Shown here one piece after another: positions 100 through 42,952 of a stretch of 54,986 nucleotides of DNA. The stretch is from Gemmataceae bacterium (GTDB taxonomy: Bacteria > Planctomycetota > Planctomycetia > Gemmatales > Gemmataceae): assembly GCA_020847555.1 (NCBI GenBank), contig JADLBT010000435.1, forward strand, positions 1 through 54,986, given 5' to 3'. Under the pieces are notes generated by a model. The model did not search any database. It worked only from the letters and a program-made list of their open reading frames with translations, and had not been told where the DNA came from. The position numbers were made by a program, and so were the translations under genes. Within the stretch, counting starts at the first letter, position 1. Each line of letters opens with the position of its first letter.

Positions 100-1845
100 A
101 TGGACCCGGTCCGCGAACATCTGGCGGCGATGACCCGGCGCCACTTCTTCCGGCGCGGCGCGCTCGGCCTCGGCACCGCCGCCCTCGCCTCGTTGCTGCC
201 GGCGAAGCCCGTGAGGGCCGACAACCCGTTCCGCTCTCCCACGACCATCGGCGGCCTGCCCGAGCTGCCGCACTTCGCGCCGAAGGCGAAGCGCGCCATC
301 TATCTGTTCATGTCCGGTGCTCCGTCGCAGCTGGACATGTGGGACTACAAGCCAACGATGGCCGACTGGTTCGACCGCGACCTGCCGGGATCGGTGCGCA
401 TGGGGCAGCGCCTCACCACCATGACCAGCGGCCAGGGCCGGTTCCCCATCGCCCCGTCGAGGTATCGGTTCCACCGCCGCGGCAAGGCCGGCACCTGGGT
501 GAGCGAACTGCTGCCGTGGACCGGCCGCATCGTGGACGATCTCGCCGTCATCAGGAGTGTTCACACCGAGGCGATCAACCACGACCCGGCCATCACCTAC
601 ATCTGCACCGGCAGTCAGCTACCCGGCCGCGCCAGCCTGGGGGCGTGGCTCAGCTACGGCCTGGGCACCGAAAACCAGGATCTGCCCGCGTTCGTCGTCA
701 TGACCGCCAGCTGGACCGGCCGCCGCGACGCGCAGGCGCTCTACAACCGCCTCTGGGGCGCGGGCTTCCTGCCGAGTCGCCATCAGGGCGTCGCCCTGCG
801 CTCGAGCGGCGACCCGGTGCTGTTCCTGTCGAACCCGCCCGGCGTCAGTCCGCAGGCCCGCCGCCGCATGCTCGACGCCCTCGCACGCCTCAACCAGCGC
901 CAGCTGGAGGAGGTCGGCGACCCCGAGACGCAGGCCCGTATCGCCCAGTACGAGATGGCCTTCCGCATGCAGACGAGCGTACCCCAGCTGATGGACCTGG
1001 CGGGCGAGCCGCGGCGTGTCCTCGATCTGTACGGCCCGGACGTCCAGCGTCCCGGCACGTTCGCGGCGAGTTGCCTGCTGGCCCGACGCCTGGCCGAGCG
1101 CGGGGTGCGCTTTGTGCAGATCTTCCACCGCGGGTGGGACCAGCACTTCAACGTCGCGGGCGACCTGCCCAACCAGTGCCGCGACATCGACCAGGCGGCC
1201 TACGGGCTGATCACCGACCTGAAGCAGCGCGGCCTGCTCGACGAAACGCTCGTCGTATGGGGCGGGGAGTTCGGCCGGACGATCTACTGCCAGGGCCGGC
1301 TGACGCGCGAGAACTACGGCCGCGACCACCACCCGCGCTGCTTTAGCGTGTGGCTGGCCGGCGGCGGCATCAAACCGGGCATCGTTTACGGCGAGACGGA
1401 CGACTTCTGTTACAACATCGTCCGCGATCCGGTTCACATCCACGACCTGAACGCCACCATCCTGCACTGCCTGGGCATCAACCACCGGCGCCTGACGTAC
1501 CGGGTGCAGGGGCTCGACATGCGCCTGACGGGCGTGGAGGACAACGGCCCGGTGCTGGGCCTGCTCGGCGGAACGAAGGCCCAAAGCCCACGGGCCGCCG
1601 CCCGTGGGCTTTGGGGCAGGCGGGTCGTGCGGCCTGCGGAAACTTTTCATTATCCGCCCCTCCACCCCACGTCTATAGTGAGAGTACCCCGCGCCGCTCT
1701 CCCGGGCGCGCGGCCAGGATCGCTCGTTCCCTCCGGAGGCTTTCGGAATGCAGCCGTTCGTTCGCGCAGGCATGCGCTCTCTTCGCCCGTCCGTCCTCTC
1801 GCTGCTGGCTTTCACCCTGACCGCTTACGTCGCTCGTGCCGATGA
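100..1845 (+). CDS. DUF1501 domain-containing protein (Tat-exported), C-terminus extended
   Basis: Planctomycete DUF1501 protein, a sulfatase/alkaline-phosphatase-like family of unknown substrate that is usually encoded beside DUF1549/DUF1553 proteins. The start ATG follows GGAGGT (88-93) by six bases. The N-terminus has a twin-arginine signal (RRHFFRRG, then a hydrophobic run and an Ala-rich cleavage region ending near residue 40). Family signatures include [18 protein letters not shown] near residue 70, the WDQH block near 347 and GEFGRT near 390. The family body ends near [18 protein letters not shown] (about 1570). No stop follows there: the frame runs through a palindrome (1581-1614) and then about 75 more low-complexity, Arg/Pro-rich residues, overlapping the next gene by 98 bases. 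The tail is probably an artefact of repeat insertion or loss of the stop. Confidence 0.85.
1581..1614. repeat. palindromic repeat family A (AAAGCCCACGGG), short form
   Basis: Perfect 14-base arms (1581-1594 and 1601-1614) around a six-base CCGCCG loop. It lies where the DUF1501 coding sequence would normally stop and is read through in that frame. It is one of seven family A copies in the window. Confidence 0.85.
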
Positions 1846-4703: not shown

Positions 4704-4774
4704 AAAGCCCACGGATGGCATCCCGTGGGCCACGTCCCCAGCACTTCGCTCACGGGACGCCGCCCGTGGGCTTT
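4704..4774. repeat. palindromic repeat family A, long form
   Basis: Seventy-one bases beginning AAAGCCCACGG and ending CCCGTGGGCTTT. Each half is itself nearly palindromic (CCCACGG..CCCGTGGG), so it looks like two inverted hairpins around a spacer of about 20 bases. It starts 15 bases after the amidase stop. Confidence 0.85.
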
Positions 4775-4955: not shown

Positions 4956-5591
4956 ATGAGCGAGGTAGTGCTGACCGTCGCCCAGATCGTCCCCAGCACG
5001 GAGGCCGAGGGGCCGGGAAAACGGTTCGCCCTCTGGTTCCAGGGATGTTCGCTGCGCTGCCCCGGCTGCTGCAACCCGGAGATGCTCTCCTTCGCGGGCG
5101 GCACCCGGATACCTCTGGACGAGGTGCTCGCGCAGGTAGAGGCCGCGGCGGCCGCGGGCGTCGAGGGCGTCACGCTGCTGGGCGGCGAACCGCTGGCCCA
5201 CGCTGCGGCGGCCGCCGCCCTCGCCCGGCGAGTGCGCCGGCTGGGTTTGACGGTCATGGTCTTCAGCGGCTACACCCTGGAAGAGGCGCGGGCTCTGCCC
5301 GATCCGGCCGTGCGCGAACTGCTCGATCAGACCGACATCCTGGTGGACGGGCCGTATGTCCGCGAACTGCCCGAGGCCGGTCGGCGGTGGGTCGGTTCGA
5401 GCAACCAGCGCGTCCACTTCCTGACCGGCCGGTACAGCGCGGCCGACCGGCGCTGGGTCCAGCCGAACACGCTGGAGATTCGCCTGAGCGGAGGCACACT
5501 GACCGTCAACGGGTTCCCCGCGCGCGAAGCCGTGGATTTGTGGAAGCGGCCGGGCGGCCGGCGGCCGGCACGGACCGAGGAACCGACGTGA
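4956..5591 (+). CDS. radical SAM 4Fe-4S protein, NrdG/PFL-activase-like
   Basis: A 211-residue single-domain radical SAM protein. The [4Fe-4S]/SAM motif CxxxCxxC is at Cys31, Cys35 and Cys38 (CSLRCPGC), preceded by FALWFQG and followed by a GGEP motif (LLGGEPLAHA). Length and layout match the small activases that make glycyl radicals (NrdG type), but no glycyl-radical enzyme is encoded nearby, so a different target is likely. The ATG at 4956 is preferred because the family sequence (VVLTVAQIVPSTEAEGPG) begins right after it. The stop overlaps the GTG of the next gene (GTGA), indicating translational coupling. It is the first gene of the co-oriented block that contains FtsH-like and MoxR-like ATPases. 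Confidence 0.85.
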   Translation: MSEVVLTVAQIVPSTEAEGPGKRFALWFQGCSLRCPGCCNPEMLSFAGGTRIPLDEVLAQVEAAAAAGVEGVTLLGGEPLAHAAAAAALARRVRRLGLTVMVFSGYTLEEARALPDPAVRELLDQTDILVDGPYVRELPEAGRRWVGSSNQRVHFLTGRYSAADRRWVQPNTLEIRLSGGTLTVNGFPAREAVDLWKRPGGRRPARTEEPT

Positions 5592-6664
5592 GCGAGCCCG
5601 AGCCCGGCCTGCCGCTGGCGGTCTGCCGGTTTGAGGCGAACCTGCTGGAGATCCTCCGCTTCTTCCTGCGGCGGCTGTCCGTCGAGCGCGCCCAGCGCCG
5701 CATCCTGGAGGCGTGCGAGCAGCCGACGTGCCTCAGCCGCGGCGCCGTCAACCTCGTCCAGGACACGCTCGCCAAGGGCTGCACCTCGCTGCTGGCGCGG
5801 GCGGGCGGCTGGCGGCGCGCGCGCCACCTCCGCGCCGGCAAGGCGGTCGAGGGGCGGCTGTGGGAGCGCACGGATCCGGAAGATCTCGGCCTGACGTTCT
5901 CGCGCCACACTCTCGACTTCCTGACCTGGGTGACGGCGGAGAAGCTCGACGCCAAGCCCGACAAGGTCCGCTGGTGGACGCCGACGGGGCGCGCGTTGAC
6001 GGTGGGAGATCAGGTGCTGGTGTATTATGCTTACGGAGCGTTGCGGGAGACCACGCTCGCGCCGCAGGCGGCCGTCAGGCTCGCGTTTACTGGCCACCCG
6101 CTGTGTCGGCTGGCCTACCCTGAGGACTTCGACAAGGCGCCGGTTGACGTCGCCGTCTCGTTCGCCTCGTGGGTGGACGGCGTCGGGGCGTGTGTCCTGG
6201 AGGCGCTGCAGGACGAGCTGGCCGAGCGGTGGACGGAGGCCGAGCGGCTCAAGCGCGACATCACTAGCTGGCAGGTGATGCAGGCGCGCGGCCAGTCGCA
6301 GGAGCGCGTCCTCGACGCCTTCCTCGGCGCCCTGGAAGGGGCGGGGCGGCGCGACCTGGCGCGGTTCCTGCTCGTCGCCCTGGACCAGCTGGTGCCGGAG
6401 GGGGGCGGCTCGGAGTGGTGGCTGGCGGGGCTGCGCGAGCGCGGCCCGACCATCGCCGAACGAACCCGGACCGGCCGCGCCGCCCTGGTGCTGCTGCGCC
6501 AGTTCCAGCGCCTGCGGCGCTGGGTCCGGGAGGCCCGCGGCGTCGCCTTCTTCGAGGAGACGTATTCCGCCAGCCAGCTGTGGAAGACCGACTGGGAGCA
6601 CTATCACGGGGACGCGCTCGCCGCCCGCGTGGATGCCATCGTGCGGGAGATCGAACCGCTTTGA
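5588..6664 (+). CDS. uncharacterised protein of the FtsH/MoxR block
   Basis: A 358-residue soluble protein that I cannot assign to a named family. GTG 5588 overlaps the stop of the radical SAM gene by four bases, so the two are probably translated together. The sequence is largely helical with few hydrophobic stretches. The middle has Trp-rich segments (FLTWVTAEKLDAKPDKVRWW, then VYYAYGAL) and the C-terminal third is charged and helix-rich (RFLLVALDQLVPEGGG, TRTGRAALVLLRQFQRLRRW). No signal peptide, membrane segment or catalytic motif is visible. Accessory proteins of variable sequence typically accompany MoxR ATPases, which fits an adaptor or substrate-selection role; that is inference from position only. 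Confidence 0.75.
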   Translation: MSEPEPGLPLAVCRFEANLLEILRFFLRRLSVERAQRRILEACEQPTCLSRGAVNLVQDTLAKGCTSLLARAGGWRRARHLRAGKAVEGRLWERTDPEDLGLTFSRHTLDFLTWVTAEKLDAKPDKVRWWTPTGRALTVGDQVLVYYAYGALRETTLAPQAAVRLAFTGHPLCRLAYPEDFDKAPVDVAVSFASWVDGVGACVLEALQDELAERWTEAERLKRDITSWQVMQARGQSQERVLDAFLGALEGAGRRDLARFLLVALDQLVPEGGGSEWWLAGLRERGPTIAERTRTGRAALVLLRQFQRLRRWVREARGVAFFEETYSASQLWKTDWEHYHGDALAARVDAIVREIEPL

Positions 6665-6724
6665 CCTGACCCGTACCCCCGGGTCGCGGCCCGGACCGTT
6701 GCCCGAACCCAAAGGAGGCGACCG

Positions 6725-7294
6725 ATGAGTCGAGCCTATCGCATCTGCGTCCGCGAGGCCCTCAACCGGGTCATCAGGGCCGAGGATCACGTGAGCACGC
6801 AGCTGGAGGTGCTGGAGATCCTGCCGTGCGAACAGATGGCCGAGCTGCTCGCCGCCGAACTGGAGGCGCGCGGATTCGAGCGCAAGGGGATGGAGCTAGT
6901 GCGCGAGGAGGGCGGCGCGGTCATCACCGTGGACGCGACGACCGCGACGGTGACGGTCCGGGCCGAGTCGGCCGAGCAGATCGAGATCGAATCCGAGCAC
7001 ATTGGCTGGGCCGCCGACCAGCAGGGCGAGGACTCGCGGCGCGTGCGCGAGCAGGTGCGCGAGGAGCTGAAGAAGGATCTCGAAGGCAAGGTGGGCAAGG
7101 AGAAGGCCAAGCTGCAGAGCCAGGTGACGGACCGGCTCGAAGCGCAGCTCGGCGACATCAAGAAGGAGCTGAACCAGGCGGTCAACCGCGTGACCGCCGA
7201 GGCGCTGAAGCGCAAGGCGGCGCAGCTCGGCCAGATCAAGGAGATGACCGAGGATCCCGCCAGTGGATCGATGACGATCGTGCTGGAAGTTTGA
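6725..7294 (+). CDS. uncharacterised coiled-coil protein of the FtsH/MoxR block
   Basis: A 189-residue acidic protein with no signal peptide. A strong AAAGGAGG site (about 6711-6718) precedes the ATG. Residues about 1-95 form a compact alpha/beta region (QLEVLEILPCEQMAELLAAE, VITVDATTATVTVRAESAEQ). About 100-170 is a Lys/Glu-rich coiled coil (REELKKDLEGKVGKEKAK). A final beta-like tail reads GSMTIVLEV. Domain order is loosely similar to small DUF1257/Ycf35-type partners, but I do not see convincing sequence identity and do not name it. Its TGA shares a base with an ATG in the next frame (TGATG), so it is probably coupled to the FtsH-like gene. Confidence 0.75.
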   Translation: MSRAYRICVREALNRVIRAEDHVSTQLEVLEILPCEQMAELLAAELEARGFERKGMELVREEGGAVITVDATTATVTVRAESAEQIEIESEHIGWAADQQGEDSRRVREQVREELKKDLEGKVGKEKAKLQSQVTDRLEAQLGDIKKELNQAVNRVTAEALKRKAAQLGQIKEMTEDPASGSMTIVLEV

Positions 7295-7332
7295 TGCCTC
7301 CTCGGCCGCTCGCGGCAGAGACGGAACCCCTC

Positions 7333-9453
7333 ATGAGCACCGTCCTGATCTCCGAGAAGGAACTGCCCAAAAATCTCACCCTCGACCAGGCAGTCGAGGT
7401 GGCCTACGCGAGCGAGCTGGCCGAGGCGGCGGCGCGCCTGCAGCGCGGGCTCGCCACGCTGATCGAGTGCGACAAGGAACTCGCCCCGCATCTGTTCGTC
7501 AACCTGCGCAACCGCCTGCGGACTGCCGGCTACCGCTGCCTCTACCTGGACGGGCGGCAGGAACGACAGGAGGGCGGCATGCCGATGGGGCTGATCGGCA
7601 CCATGATCGGCCAGATCCGTGACGCGGTGCGCGGCGCCGTCGAGTTCGAGAAGCTCGTCGTCGTGCTGCCGCACCTCGACCTGCTGACGACGAGCCAGAG
7701 CGGGCTGACCGCCGAGGCGCGCGAGGTGATTCCGCTCATGTACGAGAATCCCTCGCTGGTGTGGCTGGGGTTCAAGGATCCGTCGTTCCCGGTGCCGGAG
7801 GTGATCGAGGGGCTGTTTCCGTACCGCATCAGCATCCTCGGCATCGCCCGCGAGCGGCTGCGCCAGCTGATCGCGCAGAAGGAGGCACGCAAGTTCGGGC
7901 GCGACTTCAACCCGTGGCAGCTGTACAAGTTCGTGTCCGGTGTCAACGCGGTGCGGCTGCGCAAGCTGCTCTCGACGCTGGAGGGCGAGGACTACCCGGC
8001 AAACCCGCGCGGGGCCTACCAGCAACTCCGCCAGGCGACGCTCGGCGGCACCCTCGAGGTGCCGGACATCAACCTCGCGGCTGACATCGGCGGCTACGCC
8101 AGGGTCAAGAAGCGGCTCCAGTCCGAGGTGCTCGACGTCCTTGCCCACAAGGATCGCGTGACCGATCCGGCGGAGATCGCGTGGCTGGAGGAGCTGATTC
8201 CCAAGGGCATGATCTTCTGGGGGCCGCCGGGGACGGGCAAGACGATGTTCGCCAAGGCGATGGCGTCGGCCATCGGGGCAGCGATCACGGTCGTATCCGG
8301 CCCGGAACTCAAGAGCAAGTGGGTCGGCGAGAGCGAGGAGCGCATCCGCCAGATCTTCCACCGCGCCCGCCAGTCGGCGCCGGCCATCATCGTCTTCGAC
8401 GAGCTGGACTCGTTCGCGTCGGCGCGCGGCACCTACACCGGCTCGGGCGTCGAGCACTCGATGGTGAACCAGCTGCTCACCGAGATGGACGGGTTCCACA
8501 AGGAGGAGATGGTGTTCGTCGTCGGCACGACGAACTTCGCGGAGATCCTCGACCCGGCGCTGCTGCGTCCCGGGCGTTTCGAGTTCCACCTGCACATCCC
8601 CTATCCCGACGCCGACGACCGCCGCGACATCCTGAAGATCTACGACCGGAAGATGCGGCTGCAGCTGAACGAGGAGGCGCTTGCGTACGCGGTCAAGCGC
8701 ACCGGCGAGCATGTGCCCGGCGCCTCGATGGGGACGAAGTTCAGCGGCGACCACCTGAACGCGCTGTGCCGGGCGCTGGCGCGTATCCGACTGCGCGACA
8801 GGCGCGACGGTGAATCGACGCGCGACGAGGTCGAGCGTGCCCTGACGGAGTGGATCGAGCGGCCAAACATGACGCCAGCGGAGGAGTGGGTACTGGCGAC
8901 ACACGAGGCGGGTCATGCGGTGGTGGCGTTGTTCTGTCCGCACCATCCGCCGATCGACCGCATCTCGATCGCGAGCGACACCCCGTGGGCGTTCGGCTAC
9001 GTGCGCTACGCCGACCCGGCGCACCGCTACATTCAGACGAAGAACTTCTACCTCGACCTGATTTGCGTGGCGCTGGGAGCGCGCGAGGCGGAAGCGCTCT
9101 TGCTGGACGATCTGTCCCTTGGAGCGGTCGCGGACCTGCAGGCGGCGACGGCGATCGCGCGTGACCTGGTCGAGATACACGGCCTGGGCGGCGAGGCGGT
9201 AGGCGTGGCCCGCTACCGCGCCGACGGCGAGGAGGGCGGCCGGCATCCGCAGCTGTCGCAGGCGATGCTGGAGGCGCTCGACAGGCAGGTGGGCACGATC
9301 CTGGAGGAGGCGCGGCAGCGCGCGGCGCAGATCGTGCGCGAGAATCGCGGCATGCTGGAGACCCTGCGCAACCTGCTGATCGAGAAGAAGGTGATCGACG
9401 CGAAGACGCTGACAGAGATGAACGCGAACAAGTACGCTGATCAGTTGAAGTAA
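7333..9453 (+). CDS. FtsH-like AAA+ zinc metalloprotease without membrane anchor
   Basis: A 706-residue ATP-dependent protease of the FtsH type. Residues about 1-260 form an N-terminal domain that looks like a degenerate P-loop/AAA-like module (Walker B-like KLVVVLPHLDLL, no Walker A), replacing the two transmembrane helices of true FtsH. The active AAA+ module follows: Walker A GPPGTGKT at 297-304, Walker B IIVFDELDSF with Asp356/Glu357, then the second region of homology GTTNFAEILDPALLRPGRFE. The M41 peptidase domain has HEAGH at 524-528 and the third zinc-ligand region VADLQAAT with Asp601. Both activities therefore look intact, in a soluble protein. ATG 7333 is chosen because conserved-looking sequence begins there (MSTVLISEKELP); ATG 7294, overlapping the previous stop, is an alternative. 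It is the core of the 4.9-14.5 kb block. Confidence 0.9.
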   Translation: MSTVLISEKELPKNLTLDQAVEVAYASELAEAAARLQRGLATLIECDKELAPHLFVNLRNRLRTAGYRCLYLDGRQERQEGGMPMGLIGTMIGQIRDAVRGAVEFEKLVVVLPHLDLLTTSQSGLTAEAREVIPLMYENPSLVWLGFKDPSFPVPEVIEGLFPYRISILGIARERLRQLIAQKEARKFGRDFNPWQLYKFVSGVNAVRLRKLLSTLEGEDYPANPRGAYQQLRQATLGGTLEVPDINLAADIGGYARVKKRLQSEVLDVLAHKDRVTDPAEIAWLEELIPKGMIFWGPPGTGKTMFAKAMASAIGAAITVVSGPELKSKWVGESEERIRQIFHRARQSAPAIIVFDELDSFASARGTYTGSGVEHSMVNQLLTEMDGFHKEEMVFVVGTTNFAEILDPALLRPGRFEFHLHIPYPDADDRRDILKIYDRKMRLQLNEEALAYAVKRTGEHVPGASMGTKFSGDHLNALCRALARIRLRDRRDGESTRDEVERALTEWIERPNMTPAEEWVLATHEAGHAVVALFCPHHPPIDRISIASDTPWAFGYVRYADPAHRYIQTKNFYLDLICVALGAREAEALLLDDLSLGAVADLQAATAIARDLVEIHGLGGEAVGVARYRADGEEGGRHPQLSQAMLEALDRQVGTILEEARQRAAQIVRENRGMLETLRNLLIEKKVIDAKTLTEMNANKYADQLK

Positions 9454-9516
9454 ACCCGCACCAGGGAGGTTTCGCAAGCGACGGACCAGCAGGGCGCCTG
9501 ACATGGAGAAGATCAC

Positions 9517-9786
9517 ATGGCCGAGATGACCATTCGCCTCCGCTGCGACCCGGAGACGGGTAAGAAGGACATCATCATCAGCCTGCGCTCCGACGCCGAC
9601 GCGCTGCCGCACGAACACGAGCAGCAGCACCGCGCCCTCGTCGAGAAGCTCCTCGAACAGGGCATCATCAAGGAAACCGAACTGGGCCGCATCGTCGTCG
9701 AGCGTGAGCAAAAGGAGAAGGAACCGCCCACCCCCGCCGCCACCAGGCCCCAGGCCGGCAAGCGCGCCGTCGCCGAGGGCGGCTGA
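9517..9786 (+). CDS. small acidic/His-containing partner protein of the FtsH-like protease
   Basis: An 89-residue cytoplasmic protein, ATG preceded by GGAGAAG (about 9505-9511). The N-terminal half is beta-strand-like (MTIRLRCDPETGKKDIIISL), followed by DADALPHEHEQQHRALVEKL and a C-terminal Pro/Ala-rich tail. The conserved-looking core ends near residue 66. It sits 63 bases after the protease gene and before a family A palindrome, so it is probably co-transcribed with the protease. It may be a small adaptor or inhibitor, but no function is demonstrated. I do not recognise a named family with confidence. Confidence 0.75.
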   Translation: MAEMTIRLRCDPETGKKDIIISLRSDADALPHEHEQQHRALVEKLLEQGIIKETELGRIVVEREQKEKEPPTPAATRPQAGKRAVAEGG

Positions 9787-9793
9787 TTCTTCC

Positions 9794-9864
9794 AAAGCCC
9801 GCGGGTGGCGCCCCGTGGGTGAAGTCGCCAACGCTCTGCCCACGGGGCGCCACCCGTGGGCTTT
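9794..9864. repeat. palindromic repeat family A, long form
   Basis: Seventy-one bases, AAAGCCCGCGGG to CCCGTGGGCTTT, same two-hairpin plan as 4704-4774. It starts eight bases after the stop of the small partner gene and ends 29 bases before the next ATG, inside what otherwise looks like one operon. It could therefore attenuate or process the transcript between the FtsH and MoxR halves. Confidence 0.85.
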
Positions 9865-9893
9865 ACTAGCTCACCCTGACCCCTGACCCCTCG

Positions 9894-12800
9894 ATGACCG
9901 TCCTCTGCTTCGCCGACCTCAACAGCCTGCAACTGACCCTCACCAGCGGCGTCGTGCCGGCAGCGGTCAGCGTGGCGCCCGTTGTCGCCGGGTTCGACGA
10001 CGATGGGCACGTCTGGGTCAAGCCGTCCGCCGCCCTGCCGCGCGCCGCCGAGAAGGAGTTGCGCAGGCTCGGCGTGCAGATCGTCAAGAGCATCGACGGC
10101 CGTCCCACCGCGGAGTTCTCCTGCTGGCCGCAACTCCTGCCGCTGCAGCGCGAGGCCAACGCGACCGTCCCGGGCAGTTCGACGCCGGTGCTGTTCGAGC
10201 TGCCGCGGCCGGCCGACCTGCCGGCCATTACCGGCGAGATCCTCCGCCTGGGCAACGATCGCCAGGCCTTCCGCTGGGTTCGCGATGACCATGACAGCTC
10301 CGTCCTGCTGCGCGTCATCGGCCCGCCGTACTATTCCCTCCTCCGGGCTCTCGACCGCGACGGGCAGGCGGAGGCGCCGCGCGCCTACGTCGAGCGCGCT
10401 CCGGGCGTGTGGATCGAAATCGGCCACACGCACCCGCTGCTCGGTCAGCTCAAGGCGCCTGCCGGCAAGCTGATCCTGCTCCGGCCGTCGCGCGACTGGG
10501 TCTACCTCGACGAGGTGCCGTACCGAGACATTTATGAGATCCTCGAATTCGCCCTACCTGACGCTGAGGTGCGCTGGCGGGACGCGACTTTGCAGCAGGC
10601 CATGAAGGTGCCGCTGCGGCTGGCGCCATCGGGCAGCCAGGATCCGGCCGAGTTGTGGGTGCTGCGCGAGAGGCCGGTCGCGGCGCTCGACGCCTTCGTT
10701 CGGTCCGCCGACGATCACTTGCTCGGGCGGCTGTCGTTCGCGGTCGGGGAAGGGGTGGGCGGGGCGAAGATCGTCGTGTTGCGCGTGCGCCCGTCGCGGT
10801 TGCCGCCGCCGGTGCTGCCGCTGCAGGCGACCGAATTCCGCCCGTACCTGAAGCTGCCGAACCTGTTCATGCCGCAGGGCTGGCGCCTGCACCCACCGCT
10901 GCGGCGCGACGCGGTGCGGAAGCTGTTTGCCGAGGATCCGGACCAGGTGACGTGGCTGTTCCCGCACGAGGACGGCACCTTCACCCCCGAGGGGCTGCCC
11001 GACAGCGTCTTCCGCCCGCTGGCAGACTGGATCGACTACGTCCTCGATCACGACCGCGCCGCCCTGCAGGGGTGGATGCAATCGATGCAGTTCGAGTTCG
11101 AGCCGTTCGTCTGCAGGGACGACCAGGATCCCCGTCCCACGCGCGACCGGGAGAAGAAGGACCGGGGCCGCGAGGTGCGCGCCCGCAAGGAGCATGAGGC
11201 GGCTGAAACGGCCGAGGCCTCGCTCACCGCCGTCCAGCCGGGCAAGGGACCGAAGCAGAATGCCGAGGCAGCCGAACCGCTGCCCGAACTGTCCCGCGCC
11301 ACACCGACCGAGTTGCAGCTTCAGCTCGCGGCGCTGGAGAGACGCTTCCTTGAGCTGGAGGGCGGCCTCGACGCCCGCGCGCGGCAGGCGTTGTGGCCGC
11401 AACTCGCGCTCCTCAACACCGCGCTGGATCACTTCAGCGATGCTGGGCTGTGCTGGACCCATGCCCTGTGGGGCGAGGACGGCCCGGTGCCGCAGCACGC
11501 CTGGGGCTGGGTGCGCACCGAGAACAGGGAACGCGCGGCGCTCCCTGGAGCGAGGGACATCGATCAGATCTTGAACAGCGCCCACGATTCACTGGCCGAC
11601 GTGCGCCTGCTGGCGGCGTACACCGTGGCCGCCGCCGCGCAGGAACCGCCGCCCGCCGAACTCGTCCGGCGCTTGCGGCCGGTACAGGAGTTCCTGCAGC
11701 AGCACGAGGCGCTGTTGCCGGTCCGCGCCGTCTGGCTCGTGGCGCTGGCGCTCTACAAGCTGTCGCACGGCGACCTGCTGGCCCTCACCCGGACGCGCGA
11801 CCGATTGCTGGAGCGGTTGTTCCAGGGCGGGCTGAACGCTGACAAGGATCTGCCGACGTTTCTGCGGTTCGCCGGCGGGCGGGCGAGCGATCGGTTTCGC
11901 ACTTACCGCGACTGGCTGCTGCTGCTGCCGGACCGCATCCGCCGGTGGATCCGCGAGAACCCGTGCAAGGACCAGCTCGCGAAATCGAACGAGGCCGAAA
12001 CGGAGGGATACGCCCACCTGATCCTGGCGTTCGGCCTGGCGCGGCTCGGGGAGGAGCAGCGGGCGCGTCAGCTGCACGTCCGCGCGCGGGAGACGCTGGG
12101 CGAGACGGACGACGTCCACACCTGCCTGCTGGAGGCGTTCGGGTTCCGCCTCCAGCAGGCGCTGGACGGTAAGCCAGCGAGCGGGCCGCTGCCGCGCGAG
12201 GTGCTGGAGTACCTGGAGGCGATGGACCCGGCCGACTCGGCGCAGCGCATCATGCGCTACAAGGTGGATCGGCTGCGCCAGCACTCGCGGATCCTTGAGC
12301 CGCACGAGAAGATTAACCCGTACCGCTCCTGGCAGGCCCGGTTCTTCGACGACCTGGAGCAGAAGCTCGCGACCCTGTGCGACGTCATCGACCGCGGCGA
12401 CCTGGAGCAGGCCGTGCGCGGCTTGCTGGACCAGACGCGCGGCCAGGCGGTCAAGGAGCAACTCCGGCGGACGCGCGTGGTCCGGGAGGCTCTGAGCGTG
12501 GCCCCGCGCGTCGGCGAGGCGTTCGCCAAGGAGTTGCTCGCCGAGACTCTCCCCGCCTGCGCCGTCCTCGACGACGCGCTCGCGAAGGCGCAGGAGGCGA
12601 CGGAGAAGGAGAACCTCCTGATGGAGCAGGCAGAGCTGATCGAGAAGGGCATGCTCGTTGCCGCCCACTTCGACCAGGCCGCCCACGTTCAGACCCTGGT
12701 CGGGCGCTTCCAGTCGCTGCTGGCGATGCTGCAGGGGACGGCCGGCGGCGCCCCCCTGGTGGATCGACTGGCGGAGCAGTCGTTCCGCGGGCTCCGCAAG

Positions 12801-13325
12801 CTGGGCATGCGCGACGAGATCCACGCCCTGCTCGGCAAGATGGCCGAGGTCGTCACGGGCGGCAAGGCACTGGCCGACCTGCGGACTCGAAAGGACTGGG
12901 GCGCCGTCCTGCGCACGCTCCTGCACGTCGCATCCGGGTGGTACTACTTCGGGGTGGAGGACGAGGCCAGGCCGATCATGGACGAGGCGCGCTTACTCCT
13001 CTGCACCGGCGATCTGGACTCGCGCGAGCAGACGAAACTGGCCTGCGCCTACGCCACGACGCTGGGACAGGCGCCGGCCGACCTGGCGTTGCAGAGCATC
13101 AACGAGCTATTCCAGAAGCTCGAGCGCATCACCGACACGTTCACCACGAACACGCACTACGCGCTGTCGCAGCTGGAGGTGATCGAGGCGGTGGTGCTGG
13201 CGGTGGTGACGGAGGACTTCGCGCTCGGCAGCACGGCGCGACGCTGGCTCGACGACGAGGAATTCCTGATCCGCCGCCGCGTCCACCACGACGTTCAGAC
13301 CCTGATGAACCAGGCGCATCTGTAG
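9894..13325 (+). CDS. very large uncharacterised scaffold-like protein of the FtsH/MoxR block
   Basis: An 1143-residue soluble protein without signal peptide or membrane segment. About 1-380 is a mixed alpha/beta region (MTVLCFADLNSLQLTLTSG at the start, KLPNLFMPQGWRLHPPLRRD near 325). About 410-460 is a charged Lys/Glu/Arg-rich linker. From about 465 to the end it is almost entirely helical, with tandem-helix character like TPR or other solenoids (LALYKLSHGDLLALTRTRDR, AHLILAFGLARLGEEQRARQ). No nucleotide-binding, vWA or protease motif is visible. The beginning reminds me of accessory domains reported with MoxR ternary systems, but this is memory, not a search. The MoxR gene starts 23 bases after its stop, so it is likely the scaffold or adaptor on which the MoxR ATPase acts. 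Confidence 0.8.
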   Translation: MTVLCFADLNSLQLTLTSGVVPAAVSVAPVVAGFDDDGHVWVKPSAALPRAAEKELRRLGVQIVKSIDGRPTAEFSCWPQLLPLQREANATVPGSSTPVLFELPRPADLPAITGEILRLGNDRQAFRWVRDDHDSSVLLRVIGPPYYSLLRALDRDGQAEAPRAYVERAPGVWIEIGHTHPLLGQLKAPAGKLILLRPSRDWVYLDEVPYRDIYEILEFALPDAEVRWRDATLQQAMKVPLRLAPSGSQDPAELWVLRERPVAALDAFVRSADDHLLGRLSFAVGEGVGGAKIVVLRVRPSRLPPPVLPLQATEFRPYLKLPNLFMPQGWRLHPPLRRDAVRKLFAEDPDQVTWLFPHEDGTFTPEGLPDSVFRPLADWIDYVLDHDRAALQGWMQSMQFEFEPFVCRDDQDPRPTRDREKKDRGREVRARKEHEAAETAEASLTAVQPGKGPKQNAEAAEPLPELSRATPTELQLQLAALERRFLELEGGLDARARQALWPQLALLNTALDHFSDAGLCWTHALWGEDGPVPQHAWGWVRTENRERAALPGARDIDQILNSAHDSLADVRLLAAYTVAAAAQEPPPAELVRRLRPVQEFLQQHEALLPVRAVWLVALALYKLSHGDLLALTRTRDRLLERLFQGGLNADKDLPTFLRFAGGRASDRFRTYRDWLLLLPDRIRRWIRENPCKDQLAKSNEAETEGYAHLILAFGLARLGEEQRARQLHVRARETLGETDDVHTCLLEAFGFRLQQALDGKPASGPLPREVLEYLEAMDPADSAQRIMRYKVDRLRQHSRILEPHEKINPYRSWQARFFDDLEQKLATLCDVIDRGDLEQAVRGLLDQTRGQAVKEQLRRTRVVREALSVAPRVGEAFAKELLAETLPACAVLDDALAKAQEATEKENLLMEQAELIEKGMLVAAHFDQAAHVQTLVGRFQSLLAMLQGTAGGAPLVDRLAEQSFRGLRKLGMRDEIHALLGKMAEVVTGGKALADLRTRKDWGAVLRTLLHVASGWYYFGVEDEARPIMDEARLLLCTGDLDSREQTKLACAYATTLGQAPADLALQSINELFQKLERITDTFTTNTHYALSQLEVIEAVVLAVVTEDFALGSTARRWLDDEEFLIRRRVHHDVQTLMNQAHL

Positions 13326-13348
13326 CCGACCCAGCGAGCGGAGGGCTC

Positions 13349-14452
13349 ATGTCCCCGCTCGCGGGCGAGTTGATAACGATCTTGAGGAATACGACCGTCA
13401 TGGCCCCGAAAACCGCCAACGCGAATCCTCTGATCACTGCCGCCAGCGAGGAGTGGCCCCTGCAGCAGCTGCAGGCCGAGGCGGAGGAGTTGCGCAAGCG
13501 CCTCAATCACTTCCGCGTCTCGCTTGGCCGCTTCTTCGTCAAGAAGCAGGAACTGATCGACCTGATGGTGATCGCCGCCATCGCCCAGGAGCCGCTGCTG
13601 CTCGTCGGCCTGCCTGGGACCGCCAAGTCGGATCTGGTGCTCAAGTTCAAGGACGCGCTCGGTCTGGGCGAGGAGGACTACTTCGAGTACATGCTGACGC
13701 GCTTCACCGAGCCGTCGGAGATCATCGGCCCGATCGACATCAGTCTGCTGCGCGAGGGCCGCTACATTCGCCGCGAGCAGGGCAAGCTGCCGACCGCCCG
13801 GCTCGCGTTCCTCGACGAGATCTTCAAGTCGAACTCGGCGATCCTGAACATCCTGCTGACGATCATCAACGAGCGCAAGTTCTACCAGGACGGAGTGCCG
13901 CAGCCGGTCCGGCTGCGCGTCCTGTTCGCCGCCGCCAACGAGGTGCCCGAGCAGGGCGAGCTGGCCGCCCTGAAGGATCGCTTCGTCCTCAAGGTCGAGA
14001 GCCGGTCGGTGCAGGAGAACCACTTCAGCGAGCTGATCGACTCTGGCCTGCAGGCGGAGGTGTACCGGAGCCTCAACCAGAAGCCGTGGGTCGAGGGCCA
14101 CGCGATGCTGGAGGACATCCTCAAGGCGCACCGCTACCTGACGTACCTGTTCGCGCGCAAGCAGCGGACGCGCGGCGGGGACGAGGAGCTGACGGACCGT
14201 TCGCAGTTCTTCCCGGCCGAGGTCTTCCGCGAGTTCCAGCGGCTGGTCAAGACACTCGTGCGCGACGACCGCCTCTTCATCAGTGACCGCAAGCTGGTGA
14301 AGCTGTACAAGCTGTTCCGCATCCGGGCGTGGCTGCTCCACGGCGGGACGGTGACGCGCGACGATCTGCGGCTGCTGATGTATCTCGGCGAGACGCACCA
14401 GGAGATGGCGCTTCTTCGCGACAAGGTGCCGGCCCTGCTCGGCGAGGCGTGA
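13349..14452 (+). CDS. MoxR-family (RavA-like) AAA+ ATPase
   Basis: A 367-residue AAA+ ATPase of the MoxR/RavA branch. MoxR proteins act as chaperone-like ATPases, usually with a vWA-domain partner. Walker A is GLPGTAKS (residues 87-94), followed by FTEPSEIIGPIDISLL, Walker B LAFLDEIFKS (Asp156, Glu157), sensor 1 VLFAAANEVPE, the arginine-finger region ALKDRFVLKV, and a helical lid domain to the end. ATG 13349 follows GGAGGG closely; ATG 13400 is an alternative with GAGGA at a better distance, and conserved sequence starts after both. It is the last gene of the block: no vWA gene follows, because valS starts 91 bases later in the same direction. Confidence 0.9.
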   Translation: MSPLAGELITILRNTTVMAPKTANANPLITAASEEWPLQQLQAEAEELRKRLNHFRVSLGRFFVKKQELIDLMVIAAIAQEPLLLVGLPGTAKSDLVLKFKDALGLGEEDYFEYMLTRFTEPSEIIGPIDISLLREGRYIRREQGKLPTARLAFLDEIFKSNSAILNILLTIINERKFYQDGVPQPVRLRVLFAAANEVPEQGELAALKDRFVLKVESRSVQENHFSELIDSGLQAEVYRSLNQKPWVEGHAMLEDILKAHRYLTYLFARKQRTRGGDEELTDRSQFFPAEVFREFQRLVKTLVRDDRLFISDRKLVKLYKLFRIRAWLLHGGTVTRDDLRLLMYLGETHQEMALLRDKVPALLGEA

Positions 14453-17804: not shown

Positions 17805-20800
17805 ATGAGCGACCCCCTCCCCGAGGACACGAACTCCGCGCGGCGGCCGCGCGAACAGCCGACCGTCAACGACGGTAGCTGCGCGGCCGGTCCGCCCACC
17901 GGCCGGCCGGCTGCCGACCCGCAGGCCACCAGCGACCTGGGACCGGACGCCGCCCCATTGCCGGCGGTCGGGGCCGTCCCCCTGTACCGGCTGGCCGACT
18001 ATGAGCTGCTGTCGGAGGTCGGACGCGGCGGGATGGGCGTCGTCTTCAAAGCCCGCCACGTCCGCCTGGGGCGGGTCGTCGCGCTGAAAATGATCCTGGC
18101 CGGCCAGCTCGCCCACGCCGACGACCGGGTCCGGTTCGACACCGAGGCGGCCGCCGCCGCCCAGTTGCAGCACCCCGGCATCGTCGCCCTGTACGAGACG
18201 GGCACCCATGACGGCCAGCCGTTCTTCAGCATGGAGTACGTCAGCGGCAGCAGCCTGGGCCAGCGCGTGGCCCAGGGCCAGCTGCCCGGCCGCCGGGCCG
18301 CCGCGTATCTGGAGAAGATCGCCCGGGCCGTCCACTATGCCCACCAGCGCGGGGTACTCCATCGCGACCTGAAGCCGGCCAACGTCCTGCTCGACGACGA
18401 CGATCAGCCGAAGATCACCGATTTCGGCCTGGCGAAGCTGTTCCGCAGCGACTCCGGCCAGACGCGCACCGGCGCCATCATCGGCACGCCGAGCTACATG
18501 TCGCCCGAGCAGGCGTCGGCCCGCCGCGACCTCGGCCCGGCGTGCGACGTGTGGAGCCTCGGTGCCATCCTGTACGAACTGCTGACCGGCCGGCCGCCGT
18601 TCCGGGGGGAGACGGCCCTCGGCACTCTGGCGCTGGTCGCCGAGACCGAGCCGGTCGCCCCGCGCCTCCTCAACCCCCAGGTCGATGCCGACCTGGAGAC
18701 GATCTGCCTCAAGTGCCTGGAGAAGGATCCGGGCCGGCGCTACGCCAGCGCCGAGGCGCTGGCCGACGACCTGCACCGCTATTTGGACGGCGAGCCGATC
18801 GCGGCGCGGCGGCTGGGGCGGCTGGGGCGGGTCCGGAAGTGGTGCCGGCGCAAGCCGGCGGCCGCAGCCCTGCTCGCCGTGTCGGCCTGCGCCCTCGCTG
18901 CCCTGCTCGCCGGGCTGGCCGCATTCGCCGTCCTGCAGCGGCAGAACGCGGAGGACGAGCGAGCTCTGCGCGAAGAGGCGGAGAAGGAGCGAGCCCGGGC
19001 CGACAAGGCCCGCCGGCTGGCCAACAGCCGGTTGGACGCGATGAGCCACCTGCTCTACCTGGCGCAGATTCGCCAGGCCGGCCACGCCTGGGAGGCGGCC
19101 GACCTGGAGCGCGCCGAACGGCTCCTCGACCGCTGGCGGCCGCGCGACGGCAAGCCAGACCTGCGCGGGTGGGAGTGGTACTACCTGCACGGCCTGTGCC
19201 GCGGGCGGTTCACCCTGCCGGGGCACCCCGGGCGCGCCACGGCGGTTGCCTTCCAGCCCGCCCCGCCCGGGACCGCACGCGGGCTCTTTGCCGAACGGCT
19301 GGCGAGCGCCGGCGGCGAGGCGTCCAGGCCCGGCGAGATCGCCGTCTGGGATCTGGAGCGCGGGGTCAGGGTGTTCACGCTGCGCGGACACCGCAACGGC
19401 GTCACCGCCCTTGCCTGGAGCCCGGACGGCAAATGCCTGGCGAGCGCCGACCACGATGGCGTGGTGAAACTCTGGGCCGCCGACGCGGGCCGCGAACTCG
19501 CCACCCTCCCCGCGGCTGCACCGTCTGCGGCCGCCGTGGCGTTCGGTCTGGCCGCCGGCGCGGCGTACCCGACCCCGGCGCCGCTCGCCGGTGTTGTCCT
19601 CGCGACCCAGGACGCCCTCGGTCACAAGGGGTTCGTTGCGGCGCTGGCGTTCGCCCCGGACGGCCGGTTGCTGGCGACGGGGGGCGGCGACGGCACCGTG
19701 AAACTGTGGGACGTTCGGATGCCGGGCGCAGCCGGGTGGAAGCCGGCGGTCGCGACGCTGCGCGGCCACCGCGGTGCGGTCAACGGCGTGGCCTTTGCCC
19801 CTGCCCCGCTTGGAGCCCTGCTGGAAGCGCCGGGAACGACGCGGCTCCTGATCGCATCGGGCGGCCAGGATGGCACCGTCCGGTTGTGGGACGGCCGAAC
19901 CCGTAAGCCGCTGCGCGTCCTCACCGGCCACCGCGGGGCCGTCCAGAGTGTGGCCTTCAACCGCAGCGGCACCCTCCTCGTCTCCGGCGGCGGGCATGGG
20001 CCGCGGGCCGGCGAGGTGAAGGTGTGGGACGCGGCGCGCGGCACCCTGCGCGCGGCGCGGGACGGGCTGGCGGACCGGGTACTGGGCGTGGCGTTCAGCG
20101 GCGACGGGCGCCTGGCCGCGGGCAGCAGCGACGGCGTCATCCGCATCTGGGACCAGGCGCTCGCCGGGGAGGCGCTCAGCTTCCGCGCCGACGCCCAGGT
20201 GGTGTACGCGGTGGCGTTCGGATACAGCGGCCGGCTGGCGAGCGCGGGGCGCGACGGCCGGGTGCGGCTGTGGAATGCGCTGCCCGGCGGGCAGACTCTC
20301 GGCCTCTCGGCCCCGCCGCAGGCCGAGGGCGTCGCCTTCAGCCCGGACGGCAAGCGGGTCGCCTGCGCCGGCCGGTTCCGCGACGGGACGGGGGAGGTCA
20401 CCGTCTGGGACGCCCGGACCGGCGTCCGCCTGTGGTCGCGCCGCGGCAAGACGGGCGGCGTGCGCGGCGTCGCGTTCAGCCCGGACGGCCTCACACTGGC
20501 GACCGCCGGCGACGACGGCGCGGTGCGCCTGTACGACGTCGGGTCGAACCGGGCGCCGCTGGTGCTCCCGGCCGCCGGAGCGATGATGGCGGTCGCGTTC
20601 TCCCCGACCGGGACGCTGCTGGCATCGGCGGGCGAGGACGAGACGATTCACCTGTGGGATCCGCGCACCGGCAGCCAGGTGCGCGGGCTGCGCGGGCACG
20701 CGAACAAGGTACTGGCCCTCGCCTTCAGTTCGGACGGCCGGCGACTGGCATCCGGCAGCTTCGACCGGACGGTGCGGGTGTGGGACGTGGCGACCGGGGA

Positions 20801-21188
20801 GGGCCGCGCGTTGAAGGGCCACACCGGCTCGACGCACGCCGTCGCCTTCAGCCCGGACGGGGCCGAACTGGCGTCGGGGAGCAGCGACCGGACGGTGCGG
20901 CTGTGGGATCTCGCCACGTGGCGCGAGTATCGGCGGCTGGAGGGCTCGGCGGGTTCGGTGCTGTCGGTCGCGTACCACCCCCAGGGGCGGCGGTTGGCGA
21001 GCGCGGGGCAGGACCGGAGTGTGCGTCTCTGGGATCTGGTGACGGGTCAGGAGATCCTCGACCTGGACGGTTCGACGGGACCGCTGAGCAGCGTCGCGTT
21101 CAGCATGGACGGCACGCGCCTGGCGAGCGCCGGTTACGACACGGCGTTGCGCGTCTGGGAGGCAGCCGGAAAGAAGGGGCCTTCGTAA
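17805..21188 (+). CDS. receptor-like Ser/Thr protein kinase with C-terminal WD40 propeller
   Basis: An 1127-residue Hanks-type kinase fused to WD40 repeats, a typical planctomycete architecture. A Pro/Ala-rich N-terminus (1-65) precedes the kinase domain: glycine loop GRGGMG 73-78, Lys95 in VALKMI, catalytic HRDLKPAN at 186-193 (Asp188), DFG at 206-208, activation segment [13 protein letters not shown] single membrane helix (about 355-377) separates it from a short coiled coil and then a large WD40 region (about 470-1120) with many blades ending in KLWD, RLWD or RVWD. The kinase would be cytoplasmic and the propeller on the other side of the membrane, probably as sensor or scaffold. ATG 17805 is preferred over TTG 17766 because AGAGG lies eight bases upstream. 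A family A repeat follows the stop. Confidence 0.95.
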
Positions 21189-21226: not shown

Positions 21227-21255
21227 AAAGCCCACGGGTGGCGTCCCGTGGGCTT
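21227..21255. repeat. palindromic repeat family A, short form
   Basis: AAAGCCCACGGG, a short GTGGCGT loop and CCCGTGGGCTT, lying 38 bases after the kinase stop. The CCTGGTGTGCA just upstream also precedes the copy at 42882-42952, suggesting that the mobile unit may be longer than the palindrome. Confidence 0.85.
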
Positions 21256-25981: not shown

Positions 25982-26147
25982 CCGGTCCTCCCTTGTCTGC
26001 AGCTCGGGGGTTGTCCGAAGACAACGCACCCGGAGTACACCTCCGGGGGGCTCGCGGCCGGACATGGATCCATGTCCCGCGCGGAGCGCGCTGCCGGTCC
26101 CCGCGTTGTATGGACTTGGACAGACGCGGAGTAGTCCCCAGAGGGAA

Positions 26148-26187
26148 GAGCGAAAGCCCACGGGACGCCACCCGTGGGCTTTCGCTC
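26148..26187. repeat. palindromic repeat family A, short form with 17-base arms
   Basis: GAGCGAAAGCCCACGGG and its exact complement around a six-base loop, starting 16 bases beyond the stop of the aminotransferase gene (minus strand). The extended perfect arms make it the strongest hairpin of the family. Confidence 0.85.
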
Positions 26188-26202
26188 CTCACTCCCCACT
26201 CC

Positions 26203-27563: not shown

Positions 27564-27630
27564 CAAGCCCAGGGGTGGCGCCCCGTGGGCGAGGAACCGC
27601 TCCGCCCACGGGGCGCCACCCCTGGGCTTG
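27564..27630. repeat. palindromic repeat family A, long variant (CAAGCCCAGGGG)
   Basis: Sixty-seven-base inverted repeat CAAGCCCAGGGGTGGCGCC... to ...CACCCCTGGGCTTG. It fills the gap between the aldehyde dehydrogenase stop (27636) and the aminotransferase start (27549), so it is inside a likely operon. The arms differ by a few bases from the other copies. Confidence 0.8.
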
Positions 27631-42881: not shown

Positions 42882-42952
42882 AAAGCCCACGGGTGGCGCC
42901 CCGTGGGCCAAGTCCCCGGCGCTCGACTCACGGGGCGCCACCCGTGGGCTTT
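42882..42952. repeat. palindromic repeat family A, long form
   Basis: Seventy-one bases, AAAGCCCACGGGTGGCGCCC... to ...CCCGTGGGCTTT, with two inverted hairpins. Closest to the copy at 9794-9864 in arm sequence. Confidence 0.85.

What the first reader, a model, noticed from the sequence alone, without database searches (positions are those of the whole stretch)
4956..14452. Seven-gene block linking a radical SAM protein, a soluble FtsH-like protease and a MoxR ATPase
Seven co-oriented genes, two of them translationally coupled by GTGA or TGATG overlaps, combine a glycyl-radical-activase-like radical SAM protein, two unknown proteins, an AAA+/M41 protease lacking membrane helices, a small partner protein, a 1143-residue helical scaffold and a MoxR-type ATPase. 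Seen: the motifs and the order. Known: MoxR ATPases are typically paired with vWA and accessory proteins, including 'ternary' systems that have been proposed for biological conflict or protein quality control. Inferred: these genes act as one ATP-driven remodelling-plus-proteolysis system, perhaps with a radical step that modifies a target. I cannot tell whether the combination is already described.
Basis: partly seen in the sequence, partly recalled or inferred. Interest (0 to 1): 0.78.

Follow-up and report, generated by a model that had tools for sequence, protein, structure and literature searches.

The report
FtsH-MoxR ternary system with radical-SAM enzyme
The seven genes are a real, conserved cluster for a protein-remodelling and protein-cutting machine that was catalogued from sequence in 2020; in the planctomycete family examined it looks like an inherited core machine, often paired with an RNA-end enzyme that the main text of that paper does not name.

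Summary
4956-14452 encodes radical SAM, fvmX6, fvmX5, soluble FtsH/M41, fvmX3-analog, fvmX7 and bpMoxR. Pfam names five of the seven after the MoxR ternary systems of Kaur et al. 2020, whose simple FtsH type has a standalone radical SAM gene. So the combination is described, and not accidental: five of six neighbour pairs recur within 0.6-3 kb in 29/34 to 32/32 testable loci, X7-MoxR in 4/9.

New here: (1) RtcA, the RNA 3'-phosphate cyclase, lies 677-1013 bp upstream of X6 in 39 of 53 family genomes holding both, and beside the radical SAM gene in 6 more; the window lacks it there. (2) The radical SAM protein resembles NrdG, yet NrdD and the glycyl-radical domain were found in 0 of 95 family genomes. 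(3) No vWA domain was found; X7 is modelled as alpha/beta head plus alpha-solenoid. (4) X6, FtsH, X7 and MoxR distances track RecA, suggesting a core machine. Function is untested.

The parts
4956..5591 (+). Radical SAM protein, 211 aa, NrdG-like core (CxxxCxxCC, GGEP, DGPY...RRWxGSxNQ) plus a C-terminal extension of about 55 aa
   Evidence: PF13353 3.2e-34, PF04055 9.7e-11; best NCBIfam NrdG TIGR02491 2.5e-28, below its cut-off; alignment of 19 rows, window included
5588..6664 (+). fvmX6, 358 aa, modelled all-helical with one beta hairpin; GTGA overlap with the radical SAM gene
   Evidence: PF20004 1.1e-91; model pLDDT 94.8; no convincing fold match
6725..7294 (+). fvmX5, 189 aa; related to fvmX2
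   Evidence: PF20003 3.2e-57; 21 of 31 aligned homologues match fvmX2 at E up to 1, best 3.8e-6
7333..9453 (+). Soluble FtsH-like AAA+/M41 metalloprotease, 706 aa; Walker A 297-304, HEAGH 524-528, conserved D601
   Evidence: PF00004 1.5e-41, PF01434 8.4e-32; motifs; alignment of 19 rows; hydropathy
9517..9786 (+). fvmX3-analog, 89 aa, invariant H34, E35, H38
   Evidence: PF20002 1e-31; alignment of 18 rows
9794..9864 (+). Palindrome between X3-analog and X7, one copy of a repeat family scattered through the window; terminator or repetitive element
   Evidence: RNA fold of 9787-9893 -67 kcal/mol, z -7.97
9894..13325 (+). fvmX7, 1143 aa: alpha/beta head 1-397, low-confidence linker, alpha-solenoid 471-1143
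   Evidence: PF20005 2.3e-98, sub-threshold bpX2 1.5e-4; model pLDDT 85.6, pTM 0.63; solenoid matches
13349..14452 (+). bpMoxR AAA+ ATPase, 367 aa, P-loop variant GLPGTAKS (GXXXTAKS)
   Evidence: PF20030 1.5e-58; sequence; RavA 1.8e-32 over residues 46-227

Best explanation
The block is the operon of a simple-type FtsH ternary system in a planctomycete resembling Gemmataceae. Shown from sequence: the seven gene families, their recurring order, intact ATPase and metalloprotease motifs, and inheritance that tracks RecA in relatives. Inferred: the proteins form one cytosolic complex. X7 serves as the scaffold, its solenoid holding clients or partners; MoxR remodels the complex; X5 and X3-analog link it to FtsH, which unfolds and cuts the client; the radical SAM enzyme modifies a protein of the system, most likely X6 or something bound to it, and so switches or tags. 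In many relatives RtcA is encoded next to the radical SAM enzyme, so the trigger or client may involve RNA with a 2',3'-cyclic or 3'-phosphate end. I think regulated turnover of specific cell complexes is likelier than anti-phage defence.
For: Families and published description. In 41 loci the next gene follows within the set limit (600-3000 bp) in: rSAM>X6 32/32, X6>X5 38/39, X5>FtsH 29/34, FtsH>X3a 20/21, X3a>X7 17/18, X7>MoxR 4/9 of testable. In 95 family genomes X6 is in 60 and X7 in 70, together in 57 (Fisher 9e-10). RecA distances correlate with X6 0.82, FtsH 0.86, X7 0.87, MoxR 0.76, and X6 with MoxR 0.90, Mantel p 0.0005 each; partial r X6-MoxR given RecA 0.74, although MoxR is usually unlinked. 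RtcA link. One metagenomic protein (P0035) joins the C-terminal half of rSAM to X6.
Against: No complex, client or activity has been shown. MoxR is elsewhere in 14 of 20 genomes. FtsH does not follow X5 within 3 kb in 5 of 34 testable loci, and 7 of 39 loci lack the radical SAM gene beside X6; some pairs counted as following have other genes between (e.g. L007, L002). The window has no RtcA next to the operon. The degenerate N-terminal AAA copy reported for this class was not recovered by hhalign. Family genomes are related, so Fisher values overstate independence; 13 of 35 X6-negative genomes have X7 and 9 of 35 have RtcA. Kaur et al. read these systems as conflict systems.
Confidence: 0.45

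Rival explanations
1. It is a biological-conflict (anti-phage or cell-suicide) system, as Kaur et al. propose: MoxR holds a proteolytic complex in check and the radical SAM enzyme matures a peptide effector.
For: Published reading of the whole class; the AAA core matches IetA defence ATPase models (best 6.4e-29) and the radical SAM protein matches viperin models (6.6e-7), as general members of those superfamilies may; gaps in the block are at most 107 nt, so X3-analog (89 aa) or X5 could be the peptide; L006 and L007 carry extra genes after X6.
Against: X6 has one above-cut-off match in 59 of 60 genomes, the other (G198) being two fragments on separate contigs. Distances track RecA, and MoxR is slower than RecA (mean 0.24 against 0.39). 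No variable effector gene was seen in the window's block; X6, X5, X3-analog, X7 and MoxR match no PADLOC model.
Confidence: 0.25
2. RtcA, the radical SAM enzyme and X6 form an RNA-end or RNA-protein quality-control module that the FtsH/MoxR machine serves.
For: RtcA is 677-1013 bp upstream of X6 in 39 of 53 genomes with both; the radical SAM gene lies between them in 19 of 19 loci in which my gene caller recovered RtcA. RtcA stays beside it, away from X6, in 6 of the other 14. In G220 RtcA is head to head with MoxR, about 220 bp apart. RtcB is in 54 of 60 X6 genomes against 18 of 35 others.
Confidence: 0.2
3. The radical SAM gene is an ordinary NrdG, activating a class III ribonucleotide reductase, and its place here is incidental.
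For: Best NCBIfam match NrdG, 98.9 bits against a cut-off of 126.1; many database homologues are named so; PDB match to pyruvate formate-lyase activase 1e-9.
Against: NRDD in 0 of 95 and Gly_radical in 0 of 95 family genomes, while the same searches ring in 6 and 3 of 14 controls; conserved C-terminal extension; overlap with X6. The window's own genome is not held.
Confidence: 0.03
4. Accidental cluster of unrelated genes.
For: MoxR and the radical SAM gene can be elsewhere.
Against: Pairs recur in genomes whose RecA proteins are as little as 56% identical.
Confidence: 0.01

Closest known systems
FtsH ternary system, simple type (Kaur, Burroughs, Iyer and Aravind 2020, eLife 9:e52696, PMC7159879)
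   Same: bpMoxR with GXXXTAKS P-loop, FtsH-type AAA protein, standalone radical SAM gene, fvmX3-analog, X5, X6, X7; planctomycetes among the hosts
   Different: No vWA domain found here; the paper's text has neither RtcA nor 'phosphate cyclase' (supplements not seen); here the system looks vertically inherited
MoxR-vWA-beta-propeller ternary system
   Same: MoxR matches bpMoxR; the X7 head weakly matches bpX2 in 14 of 32 homologues, best 1.8e-5
   Different: The window's block has an FtsH protease and no beta-propeller
RavA-ViaA of E. coli
   Same: MoxR ATPase domain alignable with RavA over residues 46-227
   Different: No ViaA-like vWA partner found here; no protease in RavA-ViaA (recalled; papers seen only in the listing)
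FtsH/AFG3L2 membrane AAA proteases
   Same: AAA plus M41 with HExxH
   Different: No membrane-like segment; residues 1-250 match no Pfam family at E 1
NrdG/pyruvate formate-lyase activase
   Same: Radical SAM cluster motif and NrdG-type sequence
   Different: No partner glycyl radical enzyme found in relatives; extra C-terminal extension

Membership tests
FtsH ternary system (Kaur et al. 2020) | MoxR component, often with GXXXTAKS P-loop | tested here: met
   PF20030 1.5e-58; GLPGTAKS
FtsH ternary system (Kaur et al. 2020) | FtsH-type active AAA domain | tested here: met
   PF00004; Walker A GPPGTGKT in the window, GxPGTGKT in 19 of 19 aligned rows
FtsH ternary system (Kaur et al. 2020) | Second, degenerate AAA copy at the FtsH N-terminus | tested here: inconclusive
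   hhalign of N-terminal against AAA columns gave probability 0.3% on a shallow alignment
FtsH ternary system (Kaur et al. 2020) | Divergent vWA domain fused to a large all-alpha domain | tested here: inconclusive
   No Pfam VWA at E 0.1 in 32 of 32 X7 homologues, no D-x-[ST]-x-S in X7, no hhalign match to one VWA protein, X7 C-terminus modelled all-alpha; the published domain is said to be very divergent, and the X7 head was not compared alone
FtsH ternary system (Kaur et al. 2020) | fvmX5, X6, X7, X3-analog proteins | tested here: met
   All above Pfam cut-offs
FtsH ternary system (Kaur et al. 2020) | Standalone radical SAM gene (simple type) | tested here: met
FtsH ternary system (Kaur et al. 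2020) | Separate peptide-effector gene | tested here: inconclusive
   Gaps in the block are at most 107 nt; X3-analog (89 aa) or X5 are the candidates
NrdG activase | Curated NrdG score | tested here: not met
   98.9 bits against cut-off 126.1
NrdG activase | NrdD partner in the genome | tested here: inconclusive
   0 of 95 family genomes; the window's own genome is not held
FtsH membrane protease | M41 zinc motif HExxH | tested here: met
   HEAGH 524-528; H524, E525, H528 invariant in 19 of 19 aligned rows
FtsH membrane protease | N-terminal membrane anchor | tested here: not met
   Highest 19-residue hydropathy mean 1.46, and that stretch starts at 305, in the AAA domain

The most novel reading that the evidence does not exclude
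Gemmataceae and relatives carry a core machine in which an RtcA-type RNA cyclase and an orphan NrdG-like radical SAM enzyme, acting without any glycyl radical enzyme, mark X6 or an RNA-bound client for MoxR-driven remodelling and soluble FtsH proteolysis: a vWA-free, RNA-linked, radical-gated protein quality-control complex rather than an immune system.
Probability: 0.15. Interest if true: 0.8.

Novelty: new variant of a known kind. Interest (0 to 1): 0.5.

Why it matters
The class was described in 2020 from sequence, as a predicted conflict system; in the open-licence library searched, the phrase 'FtsH ternary system' occurs in that paper only, and I saw no experimental study of it in the listings. 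The RtcA link, an NrdG-like activase in genomes where no glycyl radical enzyme was found, and RecA-like inheritance give concrete handles: what does the radical enzyme modify, is RNA the trigger, and what does the soluble FtsH cut? It also warns that proteins named 'anaerobic ribonucleoside-triphosphate reductase activating protein' in this family may be misnamed.

Tried and rejected

Rows dropped or chosen: radical SAM alignment 19 of 22 called proteins (three called short were left out), X5 31 of 33, X3-analog 18 of 19, FtsH 18 of 27 called plus L041 (mostly contig-end fragments left out). Structure alignments: X7 50 of 120 listed homologues plus 14 locus proteins, X6 60 of 120 plus 19. L029 and L037 are two contigs of one isolate with one X6 gene apparently split between them. 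Where a genome had several RecA matches the best-scoring one was used. My gene caller missed some genes in other loci (e.g. FtsH in L018 and L082, MoxR in L073), so counts of pairs rest on profile hits.
Full report
What is there. Seven co-oriented genes occupy 4956-14452: an NrdG-like radical SAM protein, fvmX6, fvmX5, a soluble FtsH-like AAA+/M41 protease, fvmX3-analog, fvmX7 and bpMoxR, by Pfam. The radical SAM gene and X6 share a GTGA; a TGATG at 7292-7296 gives FtsH an in-frame alternative start, but homologues start at the ATG at 7333. FtsH has Walker A GPPGTGKT, HEAGH and a conserved D601 (third zinc ligand by recall), and no membrane-like stretch. MoxR has the P-loop GLPGTAKS. Upstream are a DUF1501 protein, a BamB-like protein and an amidase; downstream ValS and a kinase-WD40 protein. 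Names of the nearest X6 homologues suggest a member of or near Gemmataceae; the window's own genome is not held.

Already described. The Pfam names fvmX3-analog, X5, X6, X7 and bpMoxR refer to the MoxR ternary systems of Kaur et al. 2020 (PMC7159879; I saw the outline with abstract, passages and section 21, not the whole text or supplements). They describe a simple FtsH type with a vWA domain fused to an all-alpha domain and a standalone radical SAM gene thought to modify a peptide, and the MoxR P-loop variant GXXXTAKS. A full-text phrase search of the open-licence library found only this paper; two later papers on ternary systems appeared in a listing and were not read.

Conservation. X6 has 597 homologues at E 0.001 among the candidates scored; an alignment of 30 of them brought 41 loci. 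I counted a gene as following if its frame starts within a set limit (600, 1600, 3000, 1000, 1200 and 1500 bp for the six pairs; other genes may lie between, as in L002 and L007). Of testable loci: rSAM>X6 32/32, X6>X5 38/39 (2 of 41 end too soon), X5>FtsH 29/34 (4 of 38), FtsH>X3a 20/21 (8 of 29), X3a>X7 17/18 (2 of 20), X7>MoxR 4/9 (8 of 17). X6 has the radical SAM gene upstream in 32 of 39 testable loci. The seven-gene order ending in MoxR is seen in the window, L023 and L041. Of 24 genomes searched, 15 have two fvmX7 matches, 12 of them close together on one contig.

Co-occurrence. In 95 genomes of the family of G011 (Limnoglobus roseus), X6 is over the cut-off in 60, X7 in 70, RtcA in 62. 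X6 with X7: 57 both, 3 X6 only, 13 X7 only, 22 neither (Fisher 9e-10); X6 with RtcA: 53, 7, 9, 26 (7.5e-10); X7 with RtcA: 51, 19, 11, 14 (0.014). X7 lies within 8 kb downstream of X6 in 32 of 57; in the other 25 the two are on different contigs, through assembly breaks or real separation. In a phylum sample X6 is over the cut-off in 1 of 149, the centre itself. The genomes are related, so these p-values are too small.

RtcA. A gene cluster upstream of the radical SAM gene in 19 loci is RtcA (Pfam RTC 7.7e-73 for the one tested, L022). The radical SAM gene lies between it and X6 in 19 of 19 by profile; in 15 of them my gene caller also has it as the next gene, with gaps from -50 to 351 nt. In family genomes RtcA is 677-1013 bp upstream of X6 on the same strand in 39 of 53 with both. 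The other 14: RtcA-rSAM together away from X6 in G003, G175, G197, G198, G203, G208 (in G198 the RtcA match is a contig-end fragment); rSAM-X6 together with RtcA elsewhere in G011, G023, G177, G214, G216, G220; all apart in G004; in G192 no rSAM is beside RtcA and its place is unknown. In G228 and G190, without an RtcA match, the radical SAM gene is also away from X6. Of the 9 X6-negative genomes with RtcA, 7 allow the test, and rSAM is beside RtcA in 0 of 7. In G220 RtcA and MoxR are divergent neighbours. The gene before RtcA varies (HemB in 5 of the 17 loci where one is visible). The conserved H near the RtcA C-terminus fits the known catalytic histidine (recalled). The text of Kaur et al. 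has no 'RtcA', 'RtcB' or 'phosphate cyclase'. The window has an amidase at that place; whether its genome has RtcA is unknown.

Radical SAM enzyme. It carries CxxxCxxCC, GGEP and the NrdG-like DGPY...RRWxGSxNQ, conserved in the 19 aligned rows, plus an extension with invariant NTxExR and NGFP. It scores below the NrdG cut-off. NRDD is in 0 of 95 and Gly_radical in 0 of 95 family genomes; the same searches ring in 6 and 3 of 14 controls. So in the family its target is not a glycyl radical enzyme that these profiles can see. One metagenomic protein (P0035, one of 120 listed) fuses the second half of this enzyme to X6; it lies on a 1651-base contig and could be a sequencing error.

X6 and X7. X6 is modelled at pLDDT 94.8 as all-helical with a hairpin, without a convincing match. 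X7 is modelled at pLDDT 85.6, pTM 0.63: alpha/beta head, low-confidence linker, alpha-solenoid, with generic solenoid matches. No vWA was found by Pfam in 32 homologues, by hhalign with one VWA protein, or by motif. The X7 head matches bpX2 weakly in 14 of 32. X5 homologues match fvmX2 in 21 of 31 at E up to 1 (best 3.8e-6), and 1 of 18 X3-analogs matches fvmX3 (0.0024), so these may be counterparts of complex-type proteins.

Inheritance. In genomes reached through the loci, pairwise distances of RecA correlate with X6 (r 0.82, n 22), FtsH (0.86, n 19), X7 (0.87, n 16) and MoxR (0.76, n 21), and X6 with MoxR at 0.90 (n 21; Mantel p 0.0005 each). Given RecA the X6-MoxR correlation is 0.74 (0.72 without G024). 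A MoxR orthologue is in 20 of 20 genomes searched (622-678 bits with my profile against 147-193 for the paralogues fetched). It lies near X7 in 4 of 20 by coordinates, probably in G019 across a contig end, cannot be judged in G017 (contig end), and is elsewhere in 14. MoxR changes more slowly than RecA (mean 0.24 against 0.39). This is the pattern of a vertically inherited machine under constraint; it does not exclude defence, and RecA was the only yardstick outside the system.

Mechanism. Shown: families, order, motifs, inheritance. Inferred: one cytosolic complex with X7 as scaffold, MoxR as remodeller, FtsH as unfoldase-protease, X5 and X3-analog as connectors, radical SAM modification of X6 or its partner as switch. 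Speculative: RNA ends as trigger through RtcA; RtcB is in 54 of 60 X6 genomes and 18 of 35 others, which may only follow genome size.

Verdict. A real and conserved system of a described kind; a variant without a recognisable vWA, with an RtcA link in relatives that I did not find in print and an orphan radical enzyme. Interest moderate.

Noticed in passing
window 1580-1615, 4704-4774, 9794-9864, 21235-21252, 26141-26194, 27564-27630, 42882-42952: A palindrome family around CCCACGGGGCGCCACCCG, several copies between genes; 11 core matches with up to 3 mismatches against 0.87 expected. Probably a REP-like element.
   Followed up: partly
L072, L077 (and L073 for the vWA gene): In G006 and G020 the system's MoxR lies in line with genes for a vWA protein, a Ser/Thr kinase and a calcineurin-like phosphatase; a vWA gene of that family is also near MoxR in G008. 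A possible vWA partner.
   Followed up: partly
L041 / G024: A MAG labelled only 'bacterium', with RecA 56-65% identical to the others, has the same seven-gene order as the window including MoxR, so MoxR linkage may be ancestral.
   Followed up: partly
L035 / G019: A contig labelled Bacteroidales carries the operon; the RecA of that genome is up to 77% identical to those of the other genomes compared, mostly planctomycetes, so the label is probably wrong.
   Followed up: partly
G017:C41, G022:C55, G190:C384, G201:C83 (RtcB): RtcB matches split at about residue 50 inside one open frame of 1017-1034 aa, as an intein would give.
   Followed up: no
L109 (G024): A Ycf46-like AAA protein near DUF1257- and DUF2997-like proteins, on another contig than the fvm operon.
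   Followed up: partly
L006, L007: Extra genes (DUF6915 and an unknown family) after X6; in L007 also a WD40 gene between X7 and MoxR.
   Followed up: no
window 17805-21188: Ser/Thr kinase with 12 matched WD40 stretches, in the most GC-rich part of the window (0.76).
   Followed up: no
database entries P0242 onward: Many homologues of the radical SAM protein are named anaerobic ribonucleoside-triphosphate reductase activating protein, although NrdD was found in 0 of 95 family genomes; probably a misnaming.
   Followed up: yes
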